Part shown: positions 14,127-33,493 of the stretch, piece by piece
How positions within the stretch are numbered: the stretch's first letter is position 1
Layout of the letters: each line of letters opens with the position of its first letter
Assembly: GCF_010119975.1 (NCBI RefSeq)
Contig: NZ_CP048222.1
Coordinates: forward strand, 3,428,501 to 3,492,500
DNA: 64,000 bases
Direction of reading: 5' to 3'
DNA from: Rhodocytophaga rosea
GTDB taxonomy: Bacteria > Bacteroidota > Bacteroidia > Cytophagales > 172606-1
The notes under the pieces: generated by a model
The model's database searches: none
What the model was told of the DNA's origin: nothing
Seen by the model: the letters and a program-made list of their open reading frames with translations, nothing else
Translations under genes and position numbers: made by a program

Positions 14127-15191
14127 TCAAATTTTTCCGCTTTCGAGTGTGTGTAATGCTTTTGCTGCCATTTCTTTTACAATGAATAATAAACTTTCAA
14201 AACGGGCATCCTGAGTGAGACCTTGTTTCCAGCGGGTATAAATCTGTTGAGCAATCACTGCATTTTTGAACAGGCCAAATATATAGTAAAACGCAATATT
14301 TGAAAGATCCCGGCCACTTTTCGCCGCATACTGTTCAACTACTTCTTGCCTGGTAAAGTTGCCGGGAAGCCATGTTAAATTAAATGATCGTAGAGCTGGT
14401 GAATCTCCTGCCTCCGTCCAGTAGGCGAGTGTAGCACCCACATCCATTAAGGGATCGCCTACTGTTGCCATTTCCCAATCGAGCACTCCAATAATTTGCG
14501 AAAGATTTTCCGGATTCAGCATAACATTATCGTGCTTATAATCATTATGCAAAAAAGCAGCAGAATGGCTCATTGGTTGATGATGCTGTAGCCAGTCAGC
14601 AAGGATATTCATTTCTTTAATGCGATCGGTTTCGGCTTGAAAATAACGCTTGCTCCAGCCTTCCACTTGCCGTTGCATATATCCCTCTGGTTTGCCCAGC
14701 TGGTGAAGTCCGGTGGTTTGTATATCCAGGCTGTGAATTACAACAAGATTATCTACAATAGATTCGGATATATGGCGGAGCTGTTCAGGGGATAACTGTA
14801 AGCTGGGAGCAGAAGCAGCTCTGAGAATCACACCGCTGATGCGTTCCATCATATAAAAAGGTGCACCCATTATCTCATGAGAATCACAATATAAAACAGG
14901 CCTGGGCACCTTATCATAATGGGGTTTGAGTAAAGAAAGTACCTTATATTCTCTGCCCATGTCATGCGCAGATTTGATATTGGCACCAACCGGCGGACGG
15001 CGAAGCACATATTCTTTCCCAGACGTATGCAAACAATAAGTCAGGTTAGAATAACCACCCGGAAACTGGCTGATGCTGGTAATTTTACCTATTTCAGGTG
15101 CATGTTCCTGGAGGTAGCTATTTAATACAGCTAAATCAATTGCTTCGCCCTGGCGTACAGGTTTGGTTGAATCTATTATAATTTCGGGCAT
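14127..15191 (-). CDS. Aminoglycoside phosphotransferase-like kinase (ACAD10/11-type)
   Basis: 354 residues of the APH/choline-kinase fold. The nucleotide-binding part begins ISQFPGGYSNLTYCL; the Brenner motif FLHNDYKHDNVM (about residues 211-222) provides the catalytic Asp, and GVLDWEMATVGDPLMDV holds the metal-binding Asp. This subgroup is fused to or next to acyl-CoA dehydrogenases, as in human ACAD10/ACAD11, where it phosphorylates 4-hydroxyacyl-CoAs. The acyl-CoA dehydrogenase gene sits 54 bp upstream in the same operon, which supports this role rather than antibiotic resistance. Confidence 0.87.
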   Translation of the reverse strand: MPEIIIDSTKPVRQGEAIDLAVLNSYLQEHAPEIGKITSISQFPGGYSNLTYCLHTSGKEYVLRRPPVGANIKSAHDMGREYKVLSLLKPHYDKVPRPVLYCDSHEIMGAPFYMMERISGVILRAASAPSLQLSPEQLRHISESIVDNLVVIHSLDIQTTGLHQLGKPEGYMQRQVEGWSKRYFQAETDRIKEMNILADWLQHHQPMSHSAAFLHNDYKHDNVMLNPENLSQIIGVLDWEMATVGDPLMDVGATLAYWTEAGDSPALRSFNLTWLPGNFTRQEVVEQYAAKSGRDLSNIAFYYIFGLFKNAVIAQQIYTRWKQGLTQDARFESLLFIVKEMAAKALHTLESGKI

Positions 15192-15245
15192 CTGTTGCAG
15201 CGTTATGAGAAAAACGATAAAGCACAGTTGAAGAGGCTCTACAGC

Positions 15246-16505
15246 CTATTTTTGATGTGACTGGATCTTTGCTGCGTTTGCTTCTCTTGTTTTCTTCTTC
15301 ACATCCAGGCCATAGATTTTCAGAATACTCAAAGCCAGATTCTGTTTGTGCACTTCATCAGCTCCATCCCAGATTCTGGCACCCCGTTCGTGCCGGTAAA
15401 TCGCAGATAAGATGATATCATCAGTCACACCCAACGCTCCATGCACTTGAATGGCCCGGTCGAGCACCCGGAGCATCATATTAGCTACAAATAGTTTAAT
15501 TCCTGAAATCTGATTCCGCACCTGAGCAGCACCATGTATATCAATTGTATGGGCCGTATTCAATACAAGTAATCTGGCAGCATCAATTTCGATACGGCTT
15601 TCGGCAATAAATCCCTGAATAAACTGTTTTTCACCTAATAGTACATTTTCTTCTATTTCACGACTGGAAGCCCGTCTGCACAGCATATCAAATGCTTTTT
15701 CAGCAATTCCTATCCATCGCATACAATGATGAATCCGTCCTGGACCCAGGCGTTCCTGGGCAAGCCGGAAACCGGCTCCTTCTTCCCCAATCAAATGTGA
15801 TACAGGCACCCGGCAATTCTGATAACGGATTTCTGCATGGCTGAACCATCCGGAACCACTTTCGCCAAAAACCGGAATATTTCTTTCATGAATAAAACCT
15901 GGTGCATTAGTTGGCACAATCAGCATACTGGCCCGCTGGTGAGGAGGCGCTTCCGGATTGGTTACAGCCATTACTACGGCGAAATCAGCCCCATCTGCCG
16001 AGCTCGTAAACCATTTATGGCCATTGATCACATACTCATTTCCTTCGCGCATTGCTGTAGTAGCCATTCTGGTAGGATTAGAACCGGCAAACTCAGGTTC
16101 AGTCATAGAAAAACAGCTTCTGATCTTGCCTTCCATGAGCGGATGGAGGAACTTCGACTTGATTTCGGCACTGCCAAACTTACTAATCAGTTCCATATTG
16201 CCAATATCAGGAGCCTGGCAGTTAAAGGTATAATGGCCATAAAAGGGAGCAAGCGCCAGTACTTCACTTACCTGCCCGAATTCGCAAAGGGTTAAACCCA
16301 GGCCACCTTCTTGCTGAGGCAAATGCAATCCCCATAAACCAGCTGCTTTTACTTTCTCACGTTTCTCATCTAATAAAGCAGTCGTTTCGGCAAGTGGCCG
16401 TTGATGGAATCCTGTTTCAAGCGGAATCAGCTCCTGCTCTATAAAATCATGTATTCTGGGCAAAAGGTCTTGCAGCCGTCTGGTAAAAAATACAGTTTCT
16501 CTCAT
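15246..16505 (-). CDS. Acyl-CoA dehydrogenase
   Basis: 419 residues with the three-domain ACAD layout: N-terminal helices, the beta domain with CFSMTEPEFAGSNPTRMATT (FAD/substrate contacts) and GHKWFTSSADGADFAVVM, and the C-terminal helical domain with RWIGIAEKAFDML and IQVHGALGVTDDIIL followed by RIWDGADEVH. It oxidises acyl-CoAs to 2-enoyl-CoAs with FAD, passing electrons to ETF. With the downstream ACAD10/11-type kinase it probably works in catabolism of hydroxy- or branched fatty acids. First gene of a leftward operon of three or four genes; the divergent flavin reductase starts about 95 bp away. Confidence 0.92.
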   Translation of the reverse strand: MRETVFFTRRLQDLLPRIHDFIEQELIPLETGFHQRPLAETTALLDEKREKVKAAGLWGLHLPQQEGGLGLTLCEFGQVSEVLALAPFYGHYTFNCQAPDIGNMELISKFGSAEIKSKFLHPLMEGKIRSCFSMTEPEFAGSNPTRMATTAMREGNEYVINGHKWFTSSADGADFAVVMAVTNPEAPPHQRASMLIVPTNAPGFIHERNIPVFGESGSGWFSHAEIRYQNCRVPVSHLIGEEGAGFRLAQERLGPGRIHHCMRWIGIAEKAFDMLCRRASSREIEENVLLGEKQFIQGFIAESRIEIDAARLLVLNTAHTIDIHGAAQVRNQISGIKLFVANMMLRVLDRAIQVHGALGVTDDIILSAIYRHERGARIWDGADEVHKQNLALSILKIYGLDVKKKTREANAAKIQSHQK

Positions 16506-19860: not shown

Positions 19861-20385
19861 ATGAAAATACGCGTAGGACAAGGATATGATGTTCACCAAT
19901 TACAGGAAGGCCTTCCTTTCTGGCTGGGTGGTATCCGGATCGAACATACACACGGAGCCCTAGGTCATTCAGATGCCGATGTACTCATTCATGTGATTTG
20001 CGATGCCCTGCTGGGAGCTGCCAACCTGCGTGATATTGGTTACCATTTTTCCGATAAAGATCCGCAGTACCAAGGCATAGACAGCAAAATACTCCTGAAA
20101 CGGGTTATGGACTTAATACGCACTGAAGGCTATGAGATCAGCAATGTTGATGCAACCATTTGCTTGCAAACACCCAAAATTAATCCGCATGTGCCTGCCA
20201 TGAAAAAGGTACTTGCCGAAGTAATGGCCATCCGCGAAGAAGATATTTCCATTAAAGCCACTACCACCGAACACTTAGGTTTTGTGGGCAGAAAAGAAGG
20301 TGTAGCGGCCTATGCTGTAGCTTTAATTTACCGGATAGAAGATGCGACTCCCCTCAGCGGCATGACTAATAGCAATATTAGATAA
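19861..20385 (+). CDS. ispF: 2-C-methyl-D-erythritol 2,4-cyclodiphosphate synthase
   Basis: 174 residues, slightly longer than the usual 155-160 because of a short C-terminal tail. The family converts CDP-methylerythritol 2-phosphate to the cyclic diphosphate in the MEP isoprenoid pathway. The metal site GYDVH (Asp and His at about residues 9-11) and the region LGHSDADVLIH (about 38-48) are intact, as are the substrate-binding DIGYHFSD and TTTEHLGFVGR motifs. It works as a cytosolic homotrimer. It has its own promoter box, and no other isoprenoid gene is adjacent. Confidence 0.96.
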   Translation: MKIRVGQGYDVHQLQEGLPFWLGGIRIEHTHGALGHSDADVLIHVICDALLGAANLRDIGYHFSDKDPQYQGIDSKILLKRVMDLIRTEGYEISNVDATICLQTPKINPHVPAMKKVLAEVMAIREEDISIKATTTEHLGFVGRKEGVAAYAVALIYRIEDATPLSGMTNSNIR

Positions 20386-20905
20386 GCTTGTTACTATTTT
20401 AATGATTAAGAGGCACTTATAGAGTGCTTTTATATTGCATTATATATGATGCTTCTAGTAACTATTCTACATAACGAGACTACTCATAAAACTAACCCAT
20501 TTTCAGATTTATCCTTCACAAAAGCTTTCAAGCTCCTGTTTTAAGAAAAATAGTTAGATAAAATACCTATTTTTAGGTATTGCAGGCTGAGAAAAAAGTT
20601 TATAATATTGCTCTGCAACCAGCTGCAAAACAGGTTATTTTTTTACAATCAATTCCAGGATTAATTAGCACGCCTGGCAATCGCCAGAATAGTCATCCCT
20701 TATCATATTGCACTTTTTGTAAAAGCACTACAGGTGTATAGGTAGCTTTTTGTGCCTGTACTAAGCCCAGTTATTGGTATAGCCAGCTTAAGAAGCCAGG
20801 CTATACCTCAGCAATGCCTTTGCCCATAATTTAATAGCTATGGCAATGATTAATTAACATACCAATACAACTAAATAATATTAACCAGCCTTCAAACCAG
20901 TGTAT
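20386..20905. other. Intergenic region with a hairpin
   Basis: 520 bp with no convincing gene. A weak hairpin with T-run follows ispF (about 20411-20432). A 9-bp inverted repeat GGTATAGCC/GGCTATACC lies at 20776-20807, about 100 bp before the AraC-type gene, and could be an operator. No -7 box of the TAnnTTTG type is obvious. Confidence 0.45.
20776..20807. repeat. Inverted repeat GGTATAGCC / GGCTATACC
   Basis: Nine-base perfect arms separated by 14 bases. It sits upstream of the AraC-family gene, so an operator or attenuator is possible; there is no T-run behind it, so it is not a standard terminator. Confidence 0.5.
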
Positions 20906-21526
20906 ATGTTCAGTAAAGTACATTTCTCTACAACCAAAATACAAGGATACCTACAAGTATGGAATACTGCTATCCGAACCCTGGCAAATGTAGGAGCATA
21001 TATCTGGTATAGAGATAAGCCAATACAGGCAAAGCAGGCCTCTGGTATACTTTCCATCACAGAGGCACATGAAGACTTTTCCAGGAATAGCATACCTGAA
21101 ATGCAGCCAGACGATTCTAGTGCAACGACAGACAAAACTTATAAAATACCCTCCCGCTTTGTATTAGCAGAAAACCTTTGCCGGAACTACAGTGAGCGGA
21201 TAGAGACGTACTTTGAGCAGAAAAAGCCCTATTTAGACCCTGAGCTTACTATGCAAAAAGTAGCCGCTGAGCTGAATATGCCTCTGCACCATCTTTCTAT
21301 GGTACTCAACGAATGTATTGGTTATAGCTTTACCGACTATGTAAACCGCTATCGGATTGAAGAAGTAAAGCGCAAATTAACAGAAATGCAGTACCTCAAA
21401 ATAGAAAGCATTGGCTATGAAGCTGGCTTTAACTCCAAAGCTACTTTTAACCGGGTGTTTAAAAAACACTGCCGGCAAAGCCCTTCGGAATACCAAAAAG
21501 CTTTACGGATCCCGGTAAGCACTTAA
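20906..21526 (+). CDS. AraC-family transcription regulator with short N-terminal part
   Basis: 206 residues from ATG 20906 (GTG 20900 adds two). The last 100 residues form the double HTH of AraC proteins: LTMQKVAAELNMPLHHLSMVLNEC, then FTDYVNRYRIEEVKRKL, and the second HTH IESIGYEAGFNSKATFNRVFKKHCRQSPSEY. The preceding linker has the residue pattern seen in Bacteroidota membrane-sensor AraC proteins, but the usual seven-helix sensor part is missing; only about 90 residues precede the HTH. It may be a truncated relic or a small cytosolic regulator. A terminator follows. Confidence 0.78.
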   Translation: MFSKVHFSTTKIQGYLQVWNTAIRTLANVGAYIWYRDKPIQAKQASGILSITEAHEDFSRNSIPEMQPDDSSATTDKTYKIPSRFVLAENLCRNYSERIETYFEQKKPYLDPELTMQKVAAELNMPLHHLSMVLNECIGYSFTDYVNRYRIEEVKRKLTEMQYLKIESIGYEAGFNSKATFNRVFKKHCRQSPSEYQKALRIPVST

Positions 21527-21563
21527 TTAAGTTTCATAATCTTAAGAAGCTTTTTACTTTGTT

Positions 21564-21591
21564 GGCTCATTTTATAAAATGAGCCTTTTTT
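21564..21591 (+). terminator. Intrinsic terminator after the AraC-type gene
   Basis: GGCTCATTTT, AT, AAAATGAGCC followed by a T-run. Located 38 bp after the stop codon. Confidence 0.85.
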
Positions 21592-22215
21592 ACCAGTTAT
21601 ATATTTTATCATTAGCCTTATCTTAAAAACAATGAAAGTTTACATCTCAGCCATAGCAATATTACTATCATTTACTGTGATGGCACAAACAACCATACAA
21701 GATTCTGTAATAGGGGTTGTAGCTATGAACAATGATACGAAAGATAGCCTGAAGTCTTACCTTAACCAGAGAATAATAGTTAAAACAAGAGGAATAGATT
21801 CATTAATTTTTATTAATGAATCTATAGTTTTATTTATCAATGGTATACCTATCAATTCTTCTATAGCAACTCCAAGCATTAAAAATAGACAAAATCTGAT
21901 ATTCAATATTGGAGATACAGCAGTTGCTAATGAGATATGGAGTTTATTTTATGTACCTAATAAAAGTGAGCGGAAATTCACAATAAGTGCCGGAATTAAC
22001 GATGGAGACCCCTTGCCCGCCTCAAAGGATAATTTTACTATCATTTTCTACAGTAAGAATTGGTTATATGGCGCATACCTTACTATTGTTCTACTCTTAA
22101 TAGCATTTATAATATTGATTAGAAAGTCCAATATTATTAAAGAACCGAATACAAGTATAGATCCTCCATTTAGTTTAGCTCGGACTCAGTTTGCATTCTG
22201 GACATTTATAATTGT

Positions 22216-22248
22216 TAAGTAATTAAACACAATTAAGTATAATATTTT
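22216..22248. repeat. Left terminal inverted repeat of the IS630-type element with its TA
   Basis: Aligned with the reverse complement of 23289-23321, 28 of 33 positions agree: TAAGTAA, four mismatches, the 16-base core ACACAATTAAGTATAA, one mismatch, ATTTT. The first two bases are the duplicated TA target. Confidence 0.85.
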
Positions 22249-23268
22249 CATCTACTTCAAGTTTTTTAAAATCAAGTTTAAAGTAAGTACCCAATCCTGA
22301 AAAGATGGTATAAAGTGCCTCCTTAAGCGCTTCTACAGACAGATAGTCTTCGGCTTTGAGCCAATGATATTTCACCTGCTTCCAAAATCGTTCGATCCTG
22401 TTAAGATGAGGACTATACTTAGGCAGCAAAAAGATGTATAATCCTTTCTGTTCCCATTCTTCTTTTTTGACTTCCCATAGGCCACATGTATGCCAGGAGG
22501 CGTTGTCTAAGACTATGACAGTAAACTTGGAAATAGATGTTGAGAAGGCCTCTACACATTCAATGATAAAGTCAGCGTTTAGACTCCCACTTTTCTGATA
22601 AGTAAGCAACTCATTATTTGTACTTAACAAGCCAAATACATTTATCCTTGTACTTCTTTGGGATAAAATAGGGGCGTGTTCGCCTTTTTTGATCCATCCA
22701 TAAGGTACACAAGGGGTAAGGCAAAACCCTGATTCGTCTCCAAAATATAAATCTATACTGCCTGTCTGTGCCAAATAAAGCAAAGCATGTAATCGCTTGA
22801 CTTTCTGCTCATATGCTTCTTTGTTTTGCAATGGCTTTATCCATTTACGGAAACGTTTCCATCGGTAGTCAATTTTTTTAAAAACCGCTTCAAGGTCATC
22901 TCACTCATAGCCGTGCCTAATTTAGCTTCTATCTCTCGCTTAGCTAATTTAAGTTGTTGTTTTTCTTTCTCTATGCTATTTTCCACTACTTCAACATGGG
23001 TAGCATTACTGGTAGTAAGGATGGGTTTTCTGCCTTTCCCTTTTTGGTTCTTTAACCCTACCACACCTGTTTTCTCAAAGCGATCAAACCACTTATAAAT
23101 ACTTAACTGACTTACTTGAAAAATGCTTGCTAACTTCTGTACTTGATAGCCTTGATTGGATAACAGTATACATTGGCAACGGTTACGTTCCTGATAACTT
23201 TTACTATCTTTATGAATCTTCTCTAAGTCTTGTTTTTGCTTGTCTGTAATCTTCTTGATATAACGCAT
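22223..23268 (-). CDS. IS630-type transposase, two overlapping frames joined by -1 frameshift
   Basis: The first frame (from ATG 23268) encodes a helix-turn-helix part: YQVQKLASIFQVSQLSIYKWF, then KTGVVGLKNQKGKGRKP. It ends at 22837. The second frame, ending at 22223, encodes the RNase H-like DDE domain: DLYFGDESGF (first Asp), FTVIVLDNASWH (second Asp) and LPKYSPHLNRIERFWK (Glu). A -1 shift at the A7 tract (22873-22879) fuses them into about 350 residues, the normal size for IS630 transposases. The protein cuts and re-inserts DNA at TA. The alternative that the element carries a disabling single-base indel is possible. Confidence 0.88.
22873..22879 (-). other. A-AAA-AAA slippery heptamer (probable programmed -1 frameshift)
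   Basis: On the minus strand, TTT TTA AAA AAA in the first frame shifts back one base to read ATT GAC TAC in the second, linking HTH and DDE domains without a stop. A-AAA-AAA is a well-known slippery sequence in bacterial insertion elements. A 12-bp palindrome (22849-22860) lies shortly downstream and could be a weak stimulator. Confidence 0.7.
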
Positions 23269-23288
23269 AAGCAAAGATACAATTTGCC

Positions 23289-23321
23289 AAAATCTTATAC
23301 TTAATTGTGTACTCTTACTTA
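23289..23321. repeat. Right terminal inverted repeat of the IS630-type element with its TA
   Basis: Reverse complement of the left end at 28 of 33 positions, with the uninterrupted 16-base core. The last two bases are the duplicated TA. Confidence 0.85.
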
Positions 23322-23851
23322 GTTCCTATATATATATATGGATTGTAAAAGATAATTATAACTCAATTAATGCCACCGCCCTTATTTTATTAGGAATAAG
23401 TGCAGTAACAGCCGTTTCAGGTGCCCTCATTAGCAATACCCAGGCAAGACAAGATGTAACTAATACCCTTGAGACTAAATCCTCACAGGGCTTCATATTA
23501 GATATTCTTTCAGATGGAGAAACAGGAATAAGTATTCACCGGTTTCAAAATGTACTATTCAACCTTGTGCTAGGATTTATATTTATCATCCGCGTATATG
23601 AAAATCTAGAAATGCCTTTATTTGAAGAAACTGTACTTATGCTAATGGGGGTCAGTTCTGGAATGTATGCAGCCTTGAAGCTTGGGGAAAATAGAACGCT
23701 TACCAATACAGCTGTAGCAGTAAATAATACGGCTTCTCTTTCCTCTTTATCAACAGCTACAAATGATGAATCTGAAACTGTAATAGATGAAGCAACAATC
23801 GCTGAAAAAGAAACAGCGGGTTAATAATATGAAATAAATATTAATAATTCT

Positions 23852-24640
23852 ATGATTACTGTTGATAAACGTATTCCTAGTCCAAATTTCACACCTGGAC
23901 GTCGTTCTTTTAAACCTGAAGCTATTGTTATTCATATTATGGAAGGTACATTAGCTGGGACAGATTCATGGTTTGCTAATCGTGCCTCCAAAGTATCAGC
24001 TCATTTTGGCATTGGCAGCAATGGAACCCTTCATCAGTATGTAGAAATAGCAAATACGGCCTGGCATTCCGGAAGAGTAAATAATCCAACATGGATTGGG
24101 ATTAAAGCAAATGGCTTAAGAGCATATTTTAATCCTAATTACTATACAATTGGAATTGAGCACGAGGGGTTTGGTATGACTGCCTGGACCAGTGCTATGT
24201 ATAATAAAAGCGCTGAGTTAATTGCTCACTTATGCCTAGACCATCATATTCCTTTAGACAGAGCACACATAGTAGGCCATCATGAAATTTATTCAGTAAA
24301 ATCTTGTCCAGGTCATAGAGTAGATATTAATTCTTTGATTGACCTGGCAAAGCAGCACCTTACTAAAGTTATTAACCCAGCTTCGCCTGTTCCTATAGCG
24401 TTAGTTCCAGTAGCATCTACATTAAGTATAATAAATCAGTCAGGTACAGTGGTAGTAAATAAGACATTAAATATACGGGAGAAAAGCCCAAATACCGCTG
24501 TTAAAATAGTGAGCCAGGCATTAGCCGGGACTATATTGAGTTATAATGGTTGGGTAACAGATGGCCAACCAGTTAATGGCAACCGCAAATGGTACTTTGA
24601 TGCGAATGGTGATTACTTCTGGAGCGGCGCCACAGCATAA
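23852..24640 (+). CDS. N-acetylmuramoyl-L-alanine amidase (Amidase_2) with SH3-like tail
   Basis: 262 residues, starting 27 bp after the disrupted membrane protein gene. The Amidase_2 domain (about 5-170) has the zinc ligands His28 (IVIHIMEG), the late His of GHHEIYS and the Cys of SCPGHR, plus SAHFGIGSNGTLHQYVE and AWHSG. It cleaves the amide bond between muramic acid and L-alanine. A C-terminal bacterial SH3-like domain (about 195-262: VVVNKTLNIREKSPNT, WYFDANGDYFW) would bind peptidoglycan. There is no signal peptide, as in phage endolysins, so export would need another route; or the enzyme acts only after lysis or through an injection-type apparatus. Confidence 0.9.
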   Translation: MITVDKRIPSPNFTPGRRSFKPEAIVIHIMEGTLAGTDSWFANRASKVSAHFGIGSNGTLHQYVEIANTAWHSGRVNNPTWIGIKANGLRAYFNPNYYTIGIEHEGFGMTAWTSAMYNKSAELIAHLCLDHHIPLDRAHIVGHHEIYSVKSCPGHRVDINSLIDLAKQHLTKVINPASPVPIALVPVASTLSIINQSGTVVVNKTLNIREKSPNTAVKIVSQALAGTILSYNGWVTDGQPVNGNRKWYFDANGDYFWSGATA

Positions 24641-24695
24641 AACTACTTTTTATTCTTTTACGACTTTTCTTGGTCCTTCTCTTCTGCCTATACAT

Positions 24696-25724
24696 ATGAA
24701 TAAGCTGCGCTTTATTGTGCCATTAATAATAATTCAATTTATTACCTATACTTTATTTGCCCAGAGCCTCATCCATAACTTTGATGGAAAAAAGGTAATT
24801 AGTATGGGAGGCTATTATAGCTATTTTGGAGCAAGTAATAATGGTAGCTGGCTTTTTCCTTTTATGGCTTACCAGCATAACCTCCGCCTGGATAAATTTC
24901 AGGCAGACGGCAATTCCATTATCCTCCAGCTAGGGACTTCTATCACCCCAAACCAGAATATGGATTATGATACCAGCAGCAATTACACATTTATGCTGCC
25001 CGGCTATGTCAATCCTTTTATTACATTCTATACCGTTCAGAAAATAGGCAATAGCGGATTTACGTATCACGCCAATCTTTCAAATGGGCTAAAATTATTG
25101 CCATATAGCTCAGTAAGTGATTCTACTATTTTAAAAAATAGTATGCTTCAATATTATATCGGCTTTGGTACAGGAATTAGGTACAGAGAATACTTAGACT
25201 TTAATATCCAACTCAACCGCATCTTTCATGATATTACCGGCCATACCAAAGAAAATTTCAAAGATAGTCACCCAGGTAAAAAATTACATGGCGGTTTTGT
25301 TAGCATGAACATGAGAGTATATCCACTTAATAAAAATATACCTGGAGGTAATTTATCACTGTTTACTGAGATTGAGTGGAGGAGTTTAGGAGAGTCTTAT
25401 TTAAATGATAAAACTCTTGCGTTTGGTTTTGGGGGAAAATACATAATTAAAGAAAAGACTCAGTGGAAAAAAGAACAGTTGGAAAGGCAAATTAAAAAGT
25501 TGATTAGAGATATTAACAAAGAAACAGAGGTTTCTGATACAGAGAAAAGCACTTTTAATGAAAAAATAAAACAGATAAAAGATGATCTGCAAATATTAAG
25601 AAACAATCTTCCATCAATCGAAGCCCAAAAAATAGAAAGTAATTTAGAGAATTTAGAAAGAGATTTAAATAAAAAACCACTTCAAATTACTGATGATACT
25701 GGAAATAAAGAATCTCAAAAATAA
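24696..25724 (+). CDS. Outer-membrane-type protein with C-terminal coiled coil
   Basis: 342 residues from ATG 24696; the frame stays open upstream inside the amidase gene, but the signal peptide MNKLRFIVPLIIIQFITYTLF (first 21 residues) sets the start. Residues about 25-250 show alternating strands and aromatic ends typical of a beta-barrel or beta-rich envelope protein (GGYYSYFGASNNGSWLFPFM, YTIGFGTGIRYREYLDFN-like patterns). Residues about 250-335 are a strongly charged coiled coil with heptads (KKEQLERQIKKLIRDINKE). The coil could reach into the periplasm. Family unknown. It follows the amidase gene by 55 bp. Confidence 0.72.
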   Translation: MNKLRFIVPLIIIQFITYTLFAQSLIHNFDGKKVISMGGYYSYFGASNNGSWLFPFMAYQHNLRLDKFQADGNSIILQLGTSITPNQNMDYDTSSNYTFMLPGYVNPFITFYTVQKIGNSGFTYHANLSNGLKLLPYSSVSDSTILKNSMLQYYIGFGTGIRYREYLDFNIQLNRIFHDITGHTKENFKDSHPGKKLHGGFVSMNMRVYPLNKNIPGGNLSLFTEIEWRSLGESYLNDKTLAFGFGGKYIIKEKTQWKKEQLERQIKKLIRDINKETEVSDTEKSTFNEKIKQIKDDLQILRNNLPSIEAQKIESNLENLERDLNKKPLQITDDTGNKESQK

Positions 25725-25870
25725 AATGCACAGTCTGCTCAAACAAGTAATACCAAGAAGCAGGAAATTGATGCTCCCACAGACAAGAACTAAAAGTAAT
25801 TAATACAGCAGAAAAGACCTAAAAGCTGTGAAGTGAACTAAAATACAAACCTCTAAAAGAACTTATATTT

Positions 25871-28618
25871 ATGCTATTCAAATATATTTTACCTTTATTA
25901 ACGATGATTTTGCTGTTTAGCTATAATGGATACAGCCAGACCACTAAACCTACTTTAATCTACCAGGAAGAATTTACATTTAGTCAAAAAGTATATAGGA
26001 TAAAAGTAGAGAATGTGAGTGATGATTATAAATACAAAATCACTATGAATGACTCTACATTTAATCTGATTGAACTAAAGCCGGATGTTTTTAAAAGAAG
26101 GTTTATAGAGACGATTGGCAAATTAGAACCTTCTATTAAAACTAAATTAATTTCTGACACCACTCTGAAAATCGTAGTTGAAGATAAAGCAGATGAATAT
26201 TTTTTAAAAATAGTTACACAGGTACTTACCACCATAGACAAATCTCCTACTTCCGGTTATCTTCTTATTGAGCAACCCAAAGTAGTAACCTATGATTATT
26301 TCGAGTATTACGGCACCATAGGATGGAGCAAAAAAAAGCTGCTGGAGAGTATAGCAAAATATTCCCTCGAAATGTACAGGTTAAAAGATTATCTGTTGGA
26401 ACATGATTCTTATTTTGGTACCAATAACAAAATAGATTATATAAACAACTATTTTAAAGAATTGAAATTTACTAAGGTAAACCGGGGACTTACTGAACTA
26501 CAAAAACAACGTTTGCTGGCTGCCGGTTTCACTAATAAAGAGCTTCATATTATTTTCCCCGATTCTCTTCCCAATTTTAATATTGATACACTTTGTATAT
26601 CGGCTGATACACTTTATGATTTTGATTCAATTATAATTAAAGATTCAATAATGACTAAAAGAGATTCAGCCAAAGCAAAGCCTGATACAATTAAGATAAA
26701 ACAAAGATTTAGTTCTCGTAACCTTTCTTATAGTCAGATTCCACAGAAGTTTGAAAAACCAAACAAATACCTCGCTAATGTACTTGAGAACTTGCAACAA
26801 GTAATTTCAAAGATGACAGGAAGGATTCAAGACAATAACGAAGAGCGAATTTTGCGAAGAGATAGTACTGATAAAAAAGAGAAATTAGAATTAATAAATC
26901 GTAAAATCTCAGATATAAAAACTTATGTTGAATCATTTAGAGCAGATAGTGTTAAATATAGAAAATTACTTGCAACCGATACGCTTGAGTCAAGAATAAA
27001 ACAACAAGATTTAGTAAAACTTAAATTGCAATTAGCCACTTTACAACAAAAAGATACCTTAGATCTTTGGAAAGCAAAAGATAAGAAAAAGAAATTAACC
27101 CCTGAGCAAAGAAACTATTAAAATGAAGTTTATACTCTTATGGATGAAATATATTTTGTTGAATTCGAGATAGAAGAACTAAGTGAGGCTTTTCAAAATT
27201 TATCAAGAATAAATGACTATGTTATAGATCAAAAGAAAAAAAACCTTTCAGACGCAAAAAGAAAATTAAGATTTTTAGAAAGCCAGAAGAAATCCCTTAG
27301 AGATACTTTATCCATAAATACGGAAATTAAAAGGACTAAAGATTTAATTACAAATTTAGATACTACGATAATCAAGTATGAAAAAATAGATAGCCTGCGA
27401 GAAGCCCAAAAAATTGCAAATAATGAAAAAATAGTTGCCCAGAACCGTTTGAAAGAAATAGAAGATAAATTAAAACAGTTCCCTACAAAAGATGGACTAT
27501 TGATAGATTCTGTTCAAATAGAGTTTTCAGCAGGAAACCTCAAAAATATGATTGTAATAGGCCGGAACAAAGATGAAGCTCATACTTTTGTCAATCCTTA
27601 TCCTATTCCTTTTTCAGCTATTCGTGATTATAACTATGCTATTCAACTGTATTCATTTAATCATCGCAATCCGCCGGATAATTATCATTACTGGATTCGT
27701 TTAAGCGATGTTATAAAATATATACCAAAGTTCTACAACGATTCTGAAGATTATAGCCCAGCTGATACAGCTTTTTTCGTTAAACCGGAGAAGAAAATGG
27801 CAATTATGCACAAAACTCCTGTTGATCGGATTTTGGAAGCGAAGGTCTTTAGCGACTTTGTAGGGTTTGATGATGATAGCCCCAATGGATTGGTACAGGC
27901 AGAAGTAAGCAAACGTCTGATTCTGCGGCCCAACCGCCGCCCCATTATCGTTGATAGAAGGCCATTTGGATTTATTGGTATTTTAAATCACCTGGAGCCT
28001 GTGGCTTCACTTAATAAGATTGAGGATAAAAATAAAGAGCTACTCTTAAATCAATATAATCCTTTAGATACAAATCAAACTTATCCATTCAAAAATGCAC
28101 GTTCCATTGATTTATTACGATATGCCAATTTCACTATTGGAGCAAAACTAAATTTGTTTGTAGTTGATTTTCCGCAGGTAAAATCTTCTTTCTTTCTGGA
28201 TATAGGTTCTGGTTTGTTAAGAACAGCAATACTCGATTCAGTAAGATTATCAGATACAATAACATTAGTTAGCCGGTACAATGCCAATTCACTGCAATCA
28301 TTTTTAGAGTTAACCTGGCAAATTAAACCTGACCACCGTTTTGGCTTTAGTATTTCACCCCGAATCAGCTATTTTGATTTAAAGTCACCTAAGTTTCAGC
28401 AAGTACCCAAATTAAATGATGAATATGCAGACATGGCCAGAGGCAACCCCTATTGGATGGTAGGAGTTCACTTAAATGCACATATTCTTCCCTCTGCTAA
28501 TGGCAGAATTTTCTTCCGGGCTACTTACACTACCATGTACGATAACCTGAAACAGGATTTCTTTCAGGCACAGCTAGGATATGCCTTTAATATTCTCAAA
28601 AGAAAACCAGGACAATAG
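25871..28618 (+). pseudogene. Large exported coiled-coil/outer-membrane gene interrupted by one in-frame TAA
   Basis: Two ORFs in the same frame, 25871-27121 (416 aa) and from ATG 27140 to 28618 (492 aa), are separated by a single TAA at 27119-27121. Reading through gives 915 codons. The first part has a signal peptide (MLFKYILPLLTMILLFSYNG) and a beta-rich domain and then a long helix region; the second begins with more heptads (ELSEAFQNLSRIND, KRKLRFLESQKKSLR) and ends in a barrel-like domain (FTIGAKLNLFVVDF, FQAQLGYAFNIL). The second part alone lacks a signal peptide although it looks like an outer-membrane protein. So the best reading is a single gene with a nonsense mutation; two real genes, readthrough or a sequencing error are alternatives. 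Confidence 0.75.
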
Positions 28619-28620
28619 TT

Positions 28621-29205
28621 ATGTGTATACTTAATAGAAGCTTTAATAATACCTGGGTTTGTATTATTTGCTTTGCCTGTATTGGGATTGCCTGTAATCC
28701 AACTATTAATACATTCAGTTGGAAAAAAGCTACTTTCAGGAATAACACAACAGGTAATGAACTACAAATAGCAAGCACTATTACCCATGACAAGAAAACA
28801 CTAACTGTGTTATTTGATACAACCGTTATTCTTCAATATGCTGCTGCAACAATTATAGACACTACGCTTTCTTATACATTAACAGTGCCTTTCACAAAAC
28901 CGGCACAAGAAAAGGATAGTATTGCAAATGTATTAGAATACTTTGTATCCAAAGATAGTTTAACCACGGTACAGTTACAGATAGCTGTAAACAATCAGTT
29001 ATTAAATGTACCAATACCTGAAATAGATACTACAGCTGGTACTTTACATTACGGATTTCCACTTACACTCACCCAGGAGCAGGTTAATGCTTCTGATTCT
29101 TTTATAGCTTATACATTTACAGTTAACATTACCAAACCTGTTACAGAAAGCGATATGTTATTTCAGCTGGAAGGATTAGATTTAATTGCAAAGAAAGAGG
29201 AATAA
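28621..29205 (+). CDS. Predicted lipoprotein of the envelope cluster
   Basis: 194 residues, starting 2 bp after the previous stop, so translationally linked to it. The N-terminus has a hydrophobic segment and a lipobox-like CFACIGIACN near residue 25. The mature domain is rich in Thr, Val and Ile with an alternating pattern (LSYTLTVPFTKPAQ, VQLQIAVNNQLLN, YTFTVNITKPVTESD) like an all-beta domain with two similar halves. Function unknown. It probably closes the operon; the next gene lies about 440 bp away. Confidence 0.68.
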   Translation: MCILNRSFNNTWVCIICFACIGIACNPTINTFSWKKATFRNNTTGNELQIASTITHDKKTLTVLFDTTVILQYAAATIIDTTLSYTLTVPFTKPAQEKDSIANVLEYFVSKDSLTTVQLQIAVNNQLLNVPIPEIDTTAGTLHYGFPLTLTQEQVNASDSFIAYTFTVNITKPVTESDMLFQLEGLDLIAKKEE

Positions 29206-29649
29206 CAATCATTACCTATCATACTGTGGTGTTTTACTGCTACACTGTAGATAGACAGATATAGAAATTGACAAGTACTCTGATATAATATCATAATACT
29301 ACTTTATTATGACGTATTCGATATTAATTATGGCAGGGCACGGGTTTAAAATGGACAGCATAAATCTTATTATGAATAACTGAACTTTTAAAATAGGCCT
29401 CTGAAAGCTTATTATGAGCAATCAATAATGTAAAGTGTCTGGCAAAAGCCTTATCACAAACATATGAAGCTTTATTATAACCTTCGGATAAACTAAAATG
29501 AATGTCGCATCATTTATGATAATCTTCAAATCATTGATATTGGTATTTTGGTCTTAACTTTAATCTACAAGACCTTACACATACCATCTGTTGGCCTCGC
29601 TTACCTTCCAGAGGAATCTGCTATCAAACTCAAATCAAATTTTATCCCA
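29206..29649. other. Intergenic region without recognised features
   Basis: 444 bp, AT-rich. An open frame from 29548 runs through its end into the next gene, but the natural ATG of that gene is at 29650. I found no terminator, promoter box or repeat here. Confidence 0.4.
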
Positions 29650-30330
29650 ATGACAATACCTCAGAGCAACAAGCTTACCATGTACGAAGGCGTACTGGAA
29701 ACCCTTAATGTATACAATAGTGTATGGAAGAATACAATTGTTATCAGTGAGGCGGTAAACGAATTCAGTATCCTGCTTCCCCAGATCCGGAAGACAGGTG
29801 CTACTAAAGCTACTTCTACCAAGGGCATTACACAGGCTAAAGTAGCTAAAAAACAGGAAATGGCAGACCGTGCTTACAAATTAGCTGGGCTTACATCAGC
29901 GTATGCGTCTAAAAGTAATAATGTAGCCTTACAGGCATCTTTAGATTATTCTCATTCCGATTTGTTTCAGACTAAAGATAACCTGGCTATCGACCATTGC
30001 ATGGTTATTTACAACCAGATTCGCCCATTAGTAGCTGAACTAAAGCCATATGGCATTACAGCTGCTGAACTGGATGCCCTACAAACAACTATTACTGCAT
30101 TTCAGACACTAATTGGGCAAAAAGGGCAGCAACAAAGTGGGATGAAAGTTATCAACCAGTCTATAGAAACTCTGTTTCAACAGGCAGATAACTTGCTAAA
30201 AACACAGCTAGATAAACTGATGCTCCGTTATACAGATACTAACCGGGAATTTTATGATGCTTATTTTTCTTCACGTATCACCCGTCATCTGGGAGGCAGC
30301 CGCAAACCGGCAAGTGTTAAAGCAGCTTAG
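29650..30330 (+). CDS. Helical hypothetical protein, 226 aa
   Basis: The ATG at 29650 gives MTIPQSNKLTMYEGVLETLN; an upstream TTG-type start would add 34 unlikely residues. The protein looks all-helical, with a region of about 150-205 forming long amphipathic helices and a C-terminal signature IETLFQQADNLLKTQLDKLM, then EFYDAYFSSRI. I recall such proteins as a common, uncharacterised family in Bacteroidota. The frameshifted gene at 44910-45535 shares the C-terminal signature (LxxLxQxAxxLLxTxLDxL, EFYxAYxxSRI). No signal peptide, so cytoplasmic. A terminator follows. Confidence 0.7.
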   Translation: MTIPQSNKLTMYEGVLETLNVYNSVWKNTIVISEAVNEFSILLPQIRKTGATKATSTKGITQAKVAKKQEMADRAYKLAGLTSAYASKSNNVALQASLDYSHSDLFQTKDNLAIDHCMVIYNQIRPLVAELKPYGITAAELDALQTTITAFQTLIGQKGQQQSGMKVINQSIETLFQQADNLLKTQLDKLMLRYTDTNREFYDAYFSSRITRHLGGSRKPASVKAA

Positions 30331-30400
30331 AATAAAGGTAGGTTTTAAATACATCGCTGTTCAGCGTTTATTATAGTAACGCATCTACGAATACCTACAC

Positions 30401-30447
30401 AAGCAGATAGATTGAGTAACGCTATAGTACTCATTCATCTGCTTTTC
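30401..30447 (+). terminator. Probable intrinsic terminator
   Basis: AAGCAGATAGATTGAGTA pairs imperfectly with TACTCATTCATCTGCTT around a 9-nt loop, followed by TTTTCT. About 70 bp after the stop of the helical protein gene. Confidence 0.6.
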
Positions 30448-30533
30448 TATTATGCGGATACTAGCGTTGCTTTCCTCATGCAACGAATCTGCGATTAAAT
30501 GGGTCATACTACTGGCAGACCTAAACTCAGCAG

Positions 30534-30959
30534 ATGATGAAAAGCTTCTACCTAATCATAGTAATGGTATGGGTATTCTTTTCCTGTACCAGGGAAGAAA
30601 ATCTTTCCACCCTCAGCGGCACCTGGAAACTTACCGCCTACCAACAAATAGAGACCGGAGCAATAGATACGGAACCTTCCAATCTGGAGCGGTCTATTGA
30701 AATTCAATTTTCAGATAATGGATCAACAGGAACCATTTCTGGTCATACGGTTACGAACCAGATATCTGGGAAATATGCCTTACAGGCTGGCAACCAGATC
30801 AATGTAGAATCATTTGGTGGAACAAAGGTCGCAGAGCCAGCATGGGGCAACCGGTTCTGGACTGCCATCTATCAGGCCGGAATATATCAGGTCAATTCAA
30901 CAAAGTTAGTGATCACTAACAAGCTGCATACGGAAAAAATGATCTTTCAGAGAAAGTAA
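30534..30959 (+). CDS. Small lipocalin/META-like lipoprotein
   Basis: 141 residues. The signal peptide MMKSFYLIIVMVWVFFSC ends in a lipobox-like cysteine (VFFSC). The mature part begins LSTLSGTWKLTAYQQIETGA, the usual opening of lipocalin-like or META-type beta barrels, and has strands such as SIEIQFSDNGSTGTISGH and TKLVITNKLHTEKMIFQRK. Such proteins are abundant lipid-anchored envelope proteins in Bacteroidota with mostly unknown ligands. It has an ATGATG start; either is possible. Separate from receptor pair 1, which begins 190 bp later. Confidence 0.7.
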   Translation: MMKSFYLIIVMVWVFFSCTREENLSTLSGTWKLTAYQQIETGAIDTEPSNLERSIEIQFSDNGSTGTISGHTVTNQISGKYALQAGNQINVESFGGTKVAEPAWGNRFWTAIYQAGIYQVNSTKLVITNKLHTEKMIFQRK

Positions 30960-31150
30960 ATATTTTCCATACTTTACTTGCAAGGAAATATTGTGATAGG
31001 TGAACCAAATTTAAAAGTCCTTATAAAATGACAGGCTTCTGGCTATGTGAGTGAGGAATATTAAGATTATTACAGGCTGACTGTGAAATAGTGCTTTGTA
31101 TCTGATGATTTCATTATAAATTTACCTATACCTACGTTTACCAGCCAGCT

Positions 31151-33493
31151 ATGAAAATTTTGTATTCGATTGCCTTGCTATTTATTTGTTTTCCTGTTTT
31201 TTCCCAAACCAGATACACCATCAGCGGCTATGTTTCGGAGCGAGGCAGCCGGGAATTGCTGATTGGTGTAAATGTATACCAGCCGGGCACTTCTGTTGGC
31301 ACCGTTACCAATAATTATGGTTTTTATTCCATTACTTTACCAGCAACCGATACCCTTACCCTTGCTTTTTCTTATGTAGGTTACCAGCCGGAACTGCGCA
31401 AAATCGCACTGAACCGGAATGTAGAACTCAACATAGAATTACTATCCGATATTCAGCTAAAAGAAGTGGAAGTAGTGGCCAAACGGCAGGAACGTATCAG
31501 CGAATCGCCGCAGATGAGTGTGGTAGAAGTGCCGGTAGCTCAAATCAAAGATATTCCGGCTTTACTGGGTGAGAAAGATGTACTGAAAGTGCTGCAACTG
31601 ATGCCAGGTGTACAAAAAGGCAGTGAAGGCAACAGCGGCTTATATGTACGTGGTGGCGGTCCGGATCAGAACCTGATTATTCTGGACGATGCCGTGGTAT
31701 ACAATGCCTATCATTTGTTCGGCTTTTTTTCTTTATTCAATGGCGATGCCTTAAAAAGTGTGGAACTCACCAAAGGAGGTTTTCCGGCCCGTTTCGGAGG
31801 CAGGCTTTCGTCGGTGGTAGAAATGAATATGAAAGAAGGTAACAAGGAGAAACTGCATGGAGAAGGCGGAATAGGATTAATTTCATCCAGGCTTACCCTG
31901 GAAGGACCCTTAAAGAAGGAGAAATCTTCCTTTCTGATCTCCGGCCGCAGAACCTATGCTGATGCGCTGATCCGGCCGTTTATGCCTAAGGATGAAAAAG
32001 GCGGATATTATTTTTATGACTTGAATACGAAAGTAAATTATGATTTTGGCAGGAAAAATAAGCTCTATCTCAGTGGTTATTTCGGACAGGACCGTTTCTT
32101 TTACCGCTCTAAATACGATGGAGGTACTGAAAAAGCCGGGTTTAACTGGGGAAACGCCACTGGTACCTTGCGTTGGAATCATTTGTTCAGCGAACGTTTG
32201 TTTGCAAATACATCATTAATCTTCAGTAATTACCGGTTTAATATCTATTCCCAGGAAAAAGACCGGGATGGGGCTGAATATAACCTGGATTATTTCTCCG
32301 GCATCCGGGACATTGGCTTTAAATACGACCTCGACTTTTTTCCAAATCCTAAGCACGCCTTTAAAGCAGGTGTGCTCAGCACCTATCACCGGTTTACGCC
32401 GAGTGCCATTGTGCTGAAAGATTCCGATGTAAATGAATTTAAGCGGGAAATAGACGCCATTCATGTAGTGGAATCTGGTGTGTATGTGGAGGATTTATAT
32501 AAACCTATTCCGCAGCTACGTATCAACGCTGGTTTTCGCCTGAGCCATTTTGCAGCCAAACACAAGCAATATTTGCGTCCAGAGCCCCGTTTGTCAGCTT
32601 CTTATGGCCTGCGTAACGATCTGTCGGTGAAAGCTTCATATGCCGTGATGAACCAATATGTACACCTGATCTCTAATACAGGTATAGGCCTGCCAACTGA
32701 TCTGTGGGTGCCTACAACCTCCCGCATTGCCCCACAGCAATCGCAACAGGTAGCAGCCGGATTAGCCAAAGACTTTACAGAACAGGGCTTAACGTTAACT
32801 CTGGAAGGATACTACAAGAAATCTAAGAATATTCTGGGCTATAAAGAAGGCGCCAGCTTTCTGTTAATTGAAGATGGCCCGGAAGGAGCCAATGAAGTAA
32901 GCTGGGAAAATAACGTAACAGCTGGCAAAGGCTGGTCGTATGGGGTAGAATTCCTGTTACAAAAGAAAATAGGCCGTTTCTCCGGGTGGGCAGGCTATAC
33001 GCTTTCCTGGACACAATTGCAGTTTGATTCTCTGAACTTTGGCAAAAAATATTATGCCCGTTACGACCGCCGCCACGATATTTCTCTGGTAGGAATTTAT
33101 GAACTGACTCCTAAAATTACAATATCAGGAACCTGGGTATATGGCACCGGCAATGCCATTACACTTCCTCTCGGTGAATATTTCGCCTATGAACATCGTC
33201 CTGGCCGGGGTGGCTCCTTTGCTCTGGCATCACAAAATGATTATGGACCAAAAAATAGCTCTCGTATGGCCGCCTATCACCGCTTAGATTTCGGCATTCA
33301 GTTTCACAAGAAAAAAAGATGGGGAGAACGTACCTGGGAGATTAGTTTGTATAATGCCTATAGCCGCAAAAATCCTTTCTTCTATTTTATCGATTACAAA
33401 TACGACGATAAAACACAGACACAGGAAGGAATTCTAAAACAGATCACGCTATTCCCGATTATACCTTCTTTCAGTTATTCTTTCAAATTTTAA
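31151..33493 (+). CDS. TonB-dependent receptor with carboxypeptidase-regulatory-like domain (receptor pair 1)
   Basis: 780 residues. Signal peptide (about 1-19), then a CarboxypepD_reg-like domain (about 22-105: YTISGYVSERGSRELLIGVN, GFYSITLP, FSYVGYQ), plug domain (about 115-225: GVQKGSEGNSGLYVRGGGPDQN, KGGFPARFGGRLSSVVEM) and a 22-strand barrel to the C-terminus, which ends in FSYSFKF with a terminal Phe. It moves a ligand across the outer membrane with TonB energy. The DUF4249 gene overlaps its stop by one base. A paralogue lies at 61071-63464. The ligand is unknown; no sugar-degrading genes are next to it. Confidence 0.92.
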   Translation: MKILYSIALLFICFPVFSQTRYTISGYVSERGSRELLIGVNVYQPGTSVGTVTNNYGFYSITLPATDTLTLAFSYVGYQPELRKIALNRNVELNIELLSDIQLKEVEVVAKRQERISESPQMSVVEVPVAQIKDIPALLGEKDVLKVLQLMPGVQKGSEGNSGLYVRGGGPDQNLIILDDAVVYNAYHLFGFFSLFNGDALKSVELTKGGFPARFGGRLSSVVEMNMKEGNKEKLHGEGGIGLISSRLTLEGPLKKEKSSFLISGRRTYADALIRPFMPKDEKGGYYFYDLNTKVNYDFGRKNKLYLSGYFGQDRFFYRSKYDGGTEKAGFNWGNATGTLRWNHLFSERLFANTSLIFSNYRFNIYSQEKDRDGAEYNLDYFSGIRDIGFKYDLDFFPNPKHAFKAGVLSTYHRFTPSAIVLKDSDVNEFKREIDAIHVVESGVYVEDLYKPIPQLRINAGFRLSHFAAKHKQYLRPEPRLSASYGLRNDLSVKASYAVMNQYVHLISNTGIGLPTDLWVPTTSRIAPQQSQQVAAGLAKDFTEQGLTLTLEGYYKKSKNILGYKEGASFLLIEDGPEGANEVSWENNVTAGKGWSYGVEFLLQKKIGRFSGWAGYTLSWTQLQFDSLNFGKKYYARYDRRHDISLVGIYELTPKITISGTWVYGTGNAITLPLGEYFAYEHRPGRGGSFALASQNDYGPKNSSRMAAYHRLDFGIQFHKKKRWGERTWEISLYNAYSRKNPFFYFIDYKYDDKTQTQEGILKQITLFPIIPSFSYSFKF

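What the first reader, a model, noticed from the sequence alone, without database searches (positions are those of the whole stretch)
25871..28618. A single in-frame TAA separates two halves of a 915-codon exported gene
The ORFs share one frame. The left half has the signal peptide and ends in coiled coil; the right half starts in coiled coil and ends in an outer-membrane-like beta domain but lacks a signal peptide. The only barrier is TAA at 27119-27121 (TAT-TAA-AAT context). That pattern suggests a nonsense mutation, or readthrough.
Basis: partly seen in the sequence, partly recalled or inferred. Interest (0 to 1): 0.6.

Follow-up and report, generated by a model that had tools for sequence, protein, structure and literature searches.

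The report
Outer-membrane gene cut by a stop
A gene for an exported outer-membrane protein, which most related loci keep in one piece, is cut in two here by a single stop codon; it is most likely a freshly broken gene and in itself ordinary.

Summary
In detail: ORFs 25871-27121 and 27140-28618 share a frame, and TAA 27119-27121 is the only barrier. The pattern alone proves little: two unrelated genes at 14127-16505 show it too. Homologues decide. In 29 of 32 related loci the right half's conserved domain sits in one uninterrupted frame with a signal-peptide-like start. The right half here lacks such a start, and its C-terminal domain models, at modest confidence, as an outer-membrane beta-barrel. 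Most likely one gene for an exported protein was cut by a recent nonsense mutation: no second lesion, 26 of 29 conserved columns kept, an accessory stretch with no match found in the congener, and a nearby gene interrupted by an IS630-type element with at least 34 genome copies. The weak link is the left half: its N-domain was not shown to belong to the family. Programmed readthrough is unlikely but not excluded: the stop position is not shared, but genome G005 has another in-frame TAA in its homologue, and the tRNA survey was incomplete and showed one odd tRNA-like pair.

The parts
25871..27121 (+). left half: ORF of 416 aa with signal-peptide-like start, an N-terminal domain, and a charged helical (coiled-coil-like) end
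   Evidence: helices in the low-confidence model
25871..25936 (+). signal-peptide-like hydrophobic N-terminus (residues 1-22, by eye)
   Evidence: translation; helix 2-19; no dedicated signal-peptide program was run
26867..27079 (+). predicted long helix before the stop (residues 333-403)
   Evidence: low confidence
27119..27121 (+). in-frame TAA, the only barrier between the halves
27101..27475 (+). predicted helices (residues 411-505 and 510-535), the first of which spans the stop
   Evidence: low confidence, stop read as Q; four overlapping 35-residue windows over the stop have heptad contrast 0.58-0.66, p 0.006-0.016 uncorrected over 40 windows; similar peaks occur elsewhere in the segment (starts 281, 323, 505)
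27140..28618 (+). right half: ORF of 492 aa from the first in-frame ATG after the stop, no signal peptide by eye
27848..27916 (+). most conserved stretch of the family (holds ...FSDFVG...PNGLVQ.E..K)
   Evidence: alignments A1 and A2
27821..28594 (+). C-terminal outer-membrane beta-barrel-like domain
   Evidence: model m0e950f78df54 (pLDDT 55 overall, 72 of 377 residues at 70 or more, mostly in C-terminal strands); VIA-align Z up to 13.1 with outer-membrane barrels
28621..29205 (+). next ORF (194 aa, lipoprotein-like N-terminus by eye), starting 3 bases after the right half ends; possibly co-transcribed
   Evidence: no family match above cut-off
21632..23824 (+). nearby gene interrupted by an IS630-type element at 22216-23321; an open frame that looks like its remainder (by eye) follows on the far side

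Best explanation
The two ORFs are the remains of one gene for an exported protein: signal peptide, N-terminal periplasmic domain, long helical coiled coil, a conserved linker domain and a C-terminal outer-membrane beta-barrel. A recent nonsense mutation in the coiled-coil segment created TAA 27119-27121. Translation now stops after 416 residues, so the exported product lacks the linker and barrel and cannot be anchored in the outer membrane. Any product restarted at 27140 has no signal peptide and should stay in the cytoplasm. Shown: one frame, one stop, most homologues in one piece, barrel-like right half, no export signal on the right half. Inferred: loss of function, recency, and that the left half's N-domain belongs to the same family.
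For: Homologues: in 29 of 32 loci the C-domain lies in one uninterrupted frame with a signal-peptide-like start; 11 of the 29 are 809-970 aa long, against 915 codons here. The right half lacks an export signal (by eye) yet models as an outer-membrane barrel. The left half supplies a signal-peptide-like start in the same frame. Recency: no other stop or frameshift in 2742 nt, which bounds unconstrained change at about 55 substitutions or 2% of sites (95%); 26 of 29 columns conserved in at least 70% of the others are kept, rank 10 of 30. Context of decay: window 20330-31205 gave no DNA match in the only congener held while flanking genes did (40 of 91 candidates scored); a gene about 2 kb upstream is interrupted by an IS630-type element with at least 34 genome copies, 31 of them at 99-100% identity (40 of 66 candidates scored). 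Breakage also occurs in relatives: G005 has an in-frame TAA at another place and G445 a frameshift.
Against: No close homologue was found, so neither selection nor the ancestral codon could be tested. The left half found no relative in the other genomes, and its best hit among the ORFs of 11 homologous loci was the G249 homologue at only E 0.1. Its N-domain was not shown to match the family: 2 of 1000 shuffles scored higher, but 186 of 1998 reached its score with a larger profile, where three of six held-out members (G249, G705, G350) beat every shuffle and three (G310, G1060, G383) did not. The right half looks fully conserved, which fits a gene still in use as well as a recently broken one. 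In the two genomes of this bacterial family with a detected homologue, both homologues carry an in-frame TAA, against 0 of 53 scored SusC-type genes in each of the same genomes, a coincidence that plain decay does not predict.
Confidence: 0.78

Rival explanations
1. Readthrough: the TAA is leaky and a small share of ribosomes makes the full-length outer-membrane protein, as a regulatory brake.
For: The right half keeps 26 of 29 conserved columns and both halves stay open. A published survey reports that in-frame stops in bacterial genes are widespread and that many are under purifying selection (PMC7918605, abstract read). The genome has a tandem pair of tRNA-like genes with 8-nt anticodon loops, one read by ARAGORN as anticodon ctta. 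The other detected homologue in this bacterial family also has an in-frame TAA.
Against: The two TAAs lie at different places and the 29 intact homologues have none. No structured RNA follows the stop (z 0.60; 148 of 200 shuffles fold at least as well). TAA ends 18 of 27 window genes, and in-frame extensions after gene ends are 0-23 codons in 26 of 27. ARAGORN named tRNAs at 39 of 40 Rfam tRNA hits, none with a plain tta anticodon; but only 150 of 500 candidates were scored and common tRNAs such as Ile (gat) are missing from the list, so this is partial. The ctta gene's relatives in G003, G005 and G102 include a ctt (Lys-type) tRNA, so the label may reflect one extra loop base. Reading four bases would also leave the right half's frame.
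Confidence: 0.09
2. Functional split: the left half works alone as a periplasmic coiled-coil protein, and the right half is made by reinitiation at 27140 or is a passenger.
For: An ATG lies 18 nt after the stop in the same frame, and the next gene starts 3 bases after the right half ends.
Against: A barrel without a signal peptide cannot reach the outer membrane by the usual route (general knowledge); the 29 intact homologues have a signal-peptide-like start on the same frame. The out-of-frame ATG at 27123 gives only a 16-residue ORF by inspection.
Confidence: 0.07
3. Two unrelated neighbouring genes that share a frame by chance; the right half lost its own start elsewhere.
For: The same layout occurs by chance at 14127-16505, and the left half's N-domain has no significant match to the family.
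Against: The right half begins in a helical segment ahead of the conserved domain and lacks the signal-peptide-like start that the 29 intact homologues have; the left half supplies one, with a helical end, at a fitting distance.
Confidence: 0.04
4. Sequencing or assembly error at the stop.
For: Cannot be checked without reads.
Against: The genome is a single 8.98 Mb contig estimated 100% complete. The frame is kept on both sides, so the error would have to be a substitution; long-read errors are mostly indels (general knowledge; the sequencing method is not known to me).
Confidence: 0.02

Closest known systems
Nonsense-interrupted pseudogenes of bacterial genomes
   Same: One in-frame stop in an otherwise intact frame whose homologues are mostly unbroken; accessory region with an insertion element nearby.
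   Different: No further lesion and no loss of conserved residues seen, so it is very young or still partly used.
In-frame stops within bacterial genes reported as often not pseudogenes (PMC7918605, abstract read)
   Same: Open frame kept on both sides of the stop.
   Different: Their argument rests on conservation and dN/dS; neither is available here, and the stop is not shared by the homologues examined.
FapF, amyloid-secretion barrel of Pseudomonas (PMC5557850, abstract read)
   Same: Barrel with a helical coiled-coil platform in the periplasm; FapF is among the fold matches of the C-domain (Z 12.1, rmsd 5.5, 201 aligned).
   Different: Z is tied with autotransporter, KdgM and NanC barrels, so only a common barrel arrangement is shown; no FapF chain among the sequence matches.

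Membership tests
Nonsense pseudogene | Homologues encode one uninterrupted protein | tested here: met
   29 of 32 loci
Nonsense pseudogene | The stop removes conserved domains | tested here: met
   The whole C-domain lies after the stop
Nonsense pseudogene | Loss of selective constraint after the stop | tested here: inconclusive
   26 of 29 conserved columns kept and no further lesion; fits recency or continued use
Nonsense pseudogene | Closest relatives carry an intact allele at the same site | not testable with these tools
   No close homologue found; no match in the congener G001
Programmed stop-codon readthrough | Stop at a shared place in homologues | tested here: not met
   No stop inside 29 homologues; G005's TAA is at another place
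Programmed stop-codon readthrough | Stimulating RNA structure after the stop | tested here: not met
   130 nt after the stop: z 0.60, 148 of 200 shuffles fold at least as well
Programmed stop-codon readthrough | tRNA that reads UAA | tested here: inconclusive
   No plain tta anticodon among tRNAs called at 39 of 40 hits, but only 150 of 500 candidates were scored; one tRNA-like gene with an 8-nt loop called ctta
Outer-membrane beta-barrel protein | C-terminal antiparallel barrel | tested here: met
   Model of modest confidence (pLDDT 55); 49 of the 50 rows shown are membrane barrels (one of them designed), Z 9.6-13.1, the other a phycobiliprotein lyase
FapF-type transporter | Sequence or fold relation to FapF above other barrels | tested here: inconclusive
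   Z tied with unrelated barrels; no FapF among the sequence matches

The most novel reading that the evidence does not exclude
In this bacterial family, genes of this outer-membrane family carry ochre codons as a brake, and a cassette of tRNA-like genes with enlarged anticodon loops (found in both genomes with a stop-interrupted homologue, not found in the congener in which no homologue was found) allows occasional in-frame readthrough.
Probability: 0.03. Interest if true: 0.75.

Novelty: new member of a known kind. Interest (0 to 1): 0.2.

Why it matters
As a broken gene it is routine. It matters mainly as a caution: annotation would call two proteins, one a barrel without an export signal, where relatives make one. 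The underlying protein family (signal peptide, variable middle part that is coiled coil in long members, conserved linker, barrel) is spread thinly over Bacteroidota and, for the members tested, has no Pfam or NCBIfam match above cut-off.

Tried and rejected
Family libraries gave no match above cut-off for either half (Pfam, NCBIfam; PADLOC none at E 0.01). A first genome-contig scan with the right half alone found no relative. The read-through AlphaFold model was too poor to use (pLDDT 42) and was not searched.

N-domain homology of the left half: suggestive (2 of 1000 shuffles higher), not supported (186 of 1998 shuffles reach it; among six held-out members 0 shuffles reached G249, G705 and G350, but 11 reached G383, 58 G1060 and 1567 G310), so left open.

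Neighbour conservation: blastp of window ORFs against the ORFs of 11 homologous loci gave, besides the right half, only matches of distant window ORFs (9372, 31151, 61071) to ORFs not beside the homologue; a sensitive comparison of four window neighbours with seven homologue neighbours gave nothing. A 16-residue out-of-frame ORF after the stop and a frameshift into the right half were considered and dropped by inspection.

Rows dropped before the homologue count: G121 and G353 (weak hits, not run against the C-domain model; by eye a relaxase-like and a Wzc-like protein) and seven class-search hits at E 2.2e-4 to 7.8e-4 (G407, G479, G576, G593, G625, G664, G698), not followed. The 3 of 32 exceptions are G005 (in-frame TAA), G445 (frameshift) and G333 (264-aa N-part near a contig end, C-domain not found). 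The signal-peptide rule was a simple hydropathy threshold; for G326 it was met only from a TTG start. The C-domain profile was iterated on the same loci.

Full report
Observation. ORF 25871-27121 (416 aa) and ORF 27140-28618 (492 aa) lie on the + strand in one frame, and TAA 27119-27121 is the only barrier. Neither open frame is chance (about 2e-16 and 3e-17 at these base compositions). Codon-usage scores of the halves (-1.03, -1.05) lie within those of 27 other window genes (-1.00 to -1.24), but shifted frames (-1.11 to -1.25) overlap that range, so this is weak support. The layout alone is not diagnostic: among the same 27 genes, 15246-16505 (acyl-CoA dehydrogenase) is followed after one TAG by an open frame that runs into 14127-15191 (APH kinase), two unrelated proteins.

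The window. It lies in a single-contig genome of 8.98 Mb with one match to the right half.

Homologues. With the right half as query, 2 of 59 genomes matched, the window's own included, and 12 of 390 of the order. With a profile, 14 of 390 (order), 22 of 395 (class) and 11 of 395 (phylum) matched; the samples overlap and each includes the window's own genome. In 32 loci screened with an iterated C-domain profile, 29 carry the C-domain in one uninterrupted frame with a hydrophobic signal-peptide-like start (a simple hydropathy rule, not a dedicated program), 398 to 970 aa long. The exceptions are G005 (in-frame TAA, 468 aa then 118 codons), G445 (frameshift) and G333 (264-aa N-part near a contig end, no C-domain found). 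Rows left out are listed under Tried and rejected.

What the protein is. The long members are signal peptide, N-domain, long charged helical segment, conserved linker (with PNGL.Q) and C-terminal beta domain. The window's C-domain models with pLDDT 55 overall, 72 of 377 residues at 70 or more. Of the 50 VIA-align rows shown, 49 are membrane barrels (one designed) and one is a phycobiliprotein lyase; the best is the AIDA-I autotransporter barrel at Z 13.1, rmsd 5.0, 183 aligned. Foldseek's 27 matches with E up to 0.001 are all outer-membrane proteins, with low TM-scores (at most 0.47). The matches are tied among unrelated barrels, so the fold class is supported, not a function. One homologue has a just sub-threshold peptidoglycan-binding match in the middle part (G249, 22.3 bits against a cut-off of 23).

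What the stop does. The right half has no export signal, while the 29 intact homologues start with one. The left half supplies it, and 915 codons fit the 11 long members (809-970 aa). Helices are predicted on both sides of the stop in a poor model; heptad contrast is high in windows over the stop (0.58-0.66, p 0.006-0.016, uncorrected), but peaks of the same size occur elsewhere in the segment. The left half's membership is the weakest link: no relative in the other genomes, E 0.1 to the G249 homologue as its best hit in 11 loci, 2 of 1000 shuffles above it but 186 of 1998 reaching it, where three of six held-out members beat every shuffle and three did not.

Age of the lesion. No other stop or frameshift is present. 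If constraint had been lost, at most about 55 substitutions (2% of sites) could have built up without another stop (95% bound). The right half keeps 26 of 29 columns that at least 70% of the others share, rank 10 of 30. So it is young, or still used.

Surroundings. Window 20330-31205 gave no DNA match in the congener G001, although flanking genes match at about 73-76% (40 of 91 candidates scored; protein searches of G001 with either half also found nothing). The gene at 21632 is interrupted by an IS630-type element at 22216-23321, and an open frame that by eye continues it follows; the element has at least 34 copies, 31 of them 99-100% identical. This looks like a decaying accessory region, which favours a broken gene.

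Readthrough. No structure follows the stop. TAA is the usual stop (18 of 27 genes), and in-frame extensions after gene ends are short in 26 of 27. Of 40 Rfam tRNA hits, ARAGORN named genes at 39, none with a plain tta anticodon; but 150 of 500 candidates were scored, and tRNAs such as Ile (gat) are not in the list, so the survey is incomplete. Two adjacent tRNA-like genes at G000:C1:3897501-3897650 have 8-nt anticodon loops, called cgag and ctta. Related arrays turned up in G003, G005 and G102, 3 of the 147 other genomes searched, not in G001, and include a ctt (Lys-type) tRNA, so the ctta label may reflect one extra loop base in a CUU-type tRNA. That G005 has both such an array and an in-frame TAA in its homologue is noted; with two cases it cannot be told from chance. 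As a base rate, 0 of 53 SusC-type genes in each of the two genomes has an internal stop (the 53 scored of 141 and 163 candidates).

Literature. A search on in-frame stops led to PMC7918605, of which I read the abstract. For FapF I read the abstract of PMC5557850, for unusual tRNAs passages of PMC7609411; the other papers were seen as search listings only. I make no claim that the protein family or the tRNA cassette is unpublished; no search was made for the family, which has no name to search by.

Verdict. A real, correctly described feature; most likely a recent nonsense mutation in an accessory outer-membrane protein gene. Ordinary, with some doubt left by the conservation after the stop, the unplaced left half and the second TAA in G005.

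Noticed in passing
window 21632-23824: Gene with a membrane segment (by eye) interrupted by an IS630-type element (22216-23321); an open frame that seems to continue it follows. At least 34 copies in the genome, 31 at 99-100% identity, which suggests a recent burst.
   Followed up: partly
window 14127-16505 (- strand): Two unrelated genes (acyl-CoA dehydrogenase, APH kinase) in one frame with a single TAG between them: a chance copy of the reported pattern.
   Followed up: yes
L149 101-251 and L154 (G000:C1:3897501-3897650): Tandem tRNA-like genes with 8-nt anticodon loops (ctta, cgag) next to a 461-aa protein without Pfam, NCBIfam or PDB match above cut-off, a few kb from a protein that resembles the SCO0854 RING family (132.8 bits, below NCBIfam's cut-off of 600). 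Similar arrays with varying anticodons (ctg, ctt, ctca, cta, ctgg) in G003, G005, G102; in G005 a relative of the 461-aa protein and a TROVE-like ORF (both by eye) lie beside the array.
   Followed up: partly
L109 4958-6721 (G005, same bacterial family): Homologue with its own in-frame TAA in the barrel region; the 118 codons after it still match the C-domain profile.
   Followed up: partly
L059 6161-7350 (G445); L110 102-896 (G333): Two more damaged homologues: a frameshift (with a phage-terminase-like ORF, by eye, next to it), and a 264-aa N-terminal part followed by a hairpin near a contig end.
   Followed up: partly
window 20330-31205: About 11 kb without a DNA match found in the congener G001 although both flanks match: an accessory region.
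   Followed up: partly
G000 SusC-type genes: 6 of 53 scored SusC matches in this genome cover only part of the model, 0 of 53 in G005, which may mean more gene decay in this genome.
   Followed up: no
L151 (G000:C1:3904850-3905150): Rfam tRNA hit of 116 nt where ARAGORN finds no tRNA, about 7 kb from the odd tRNA pair.
   Followed up: no
L021 8554-11205, residues 318-373: Homologue in G249 with a just sub-threshold peptidoglycan-binding match in the segment where others have coiled coil.
   Followed up: no
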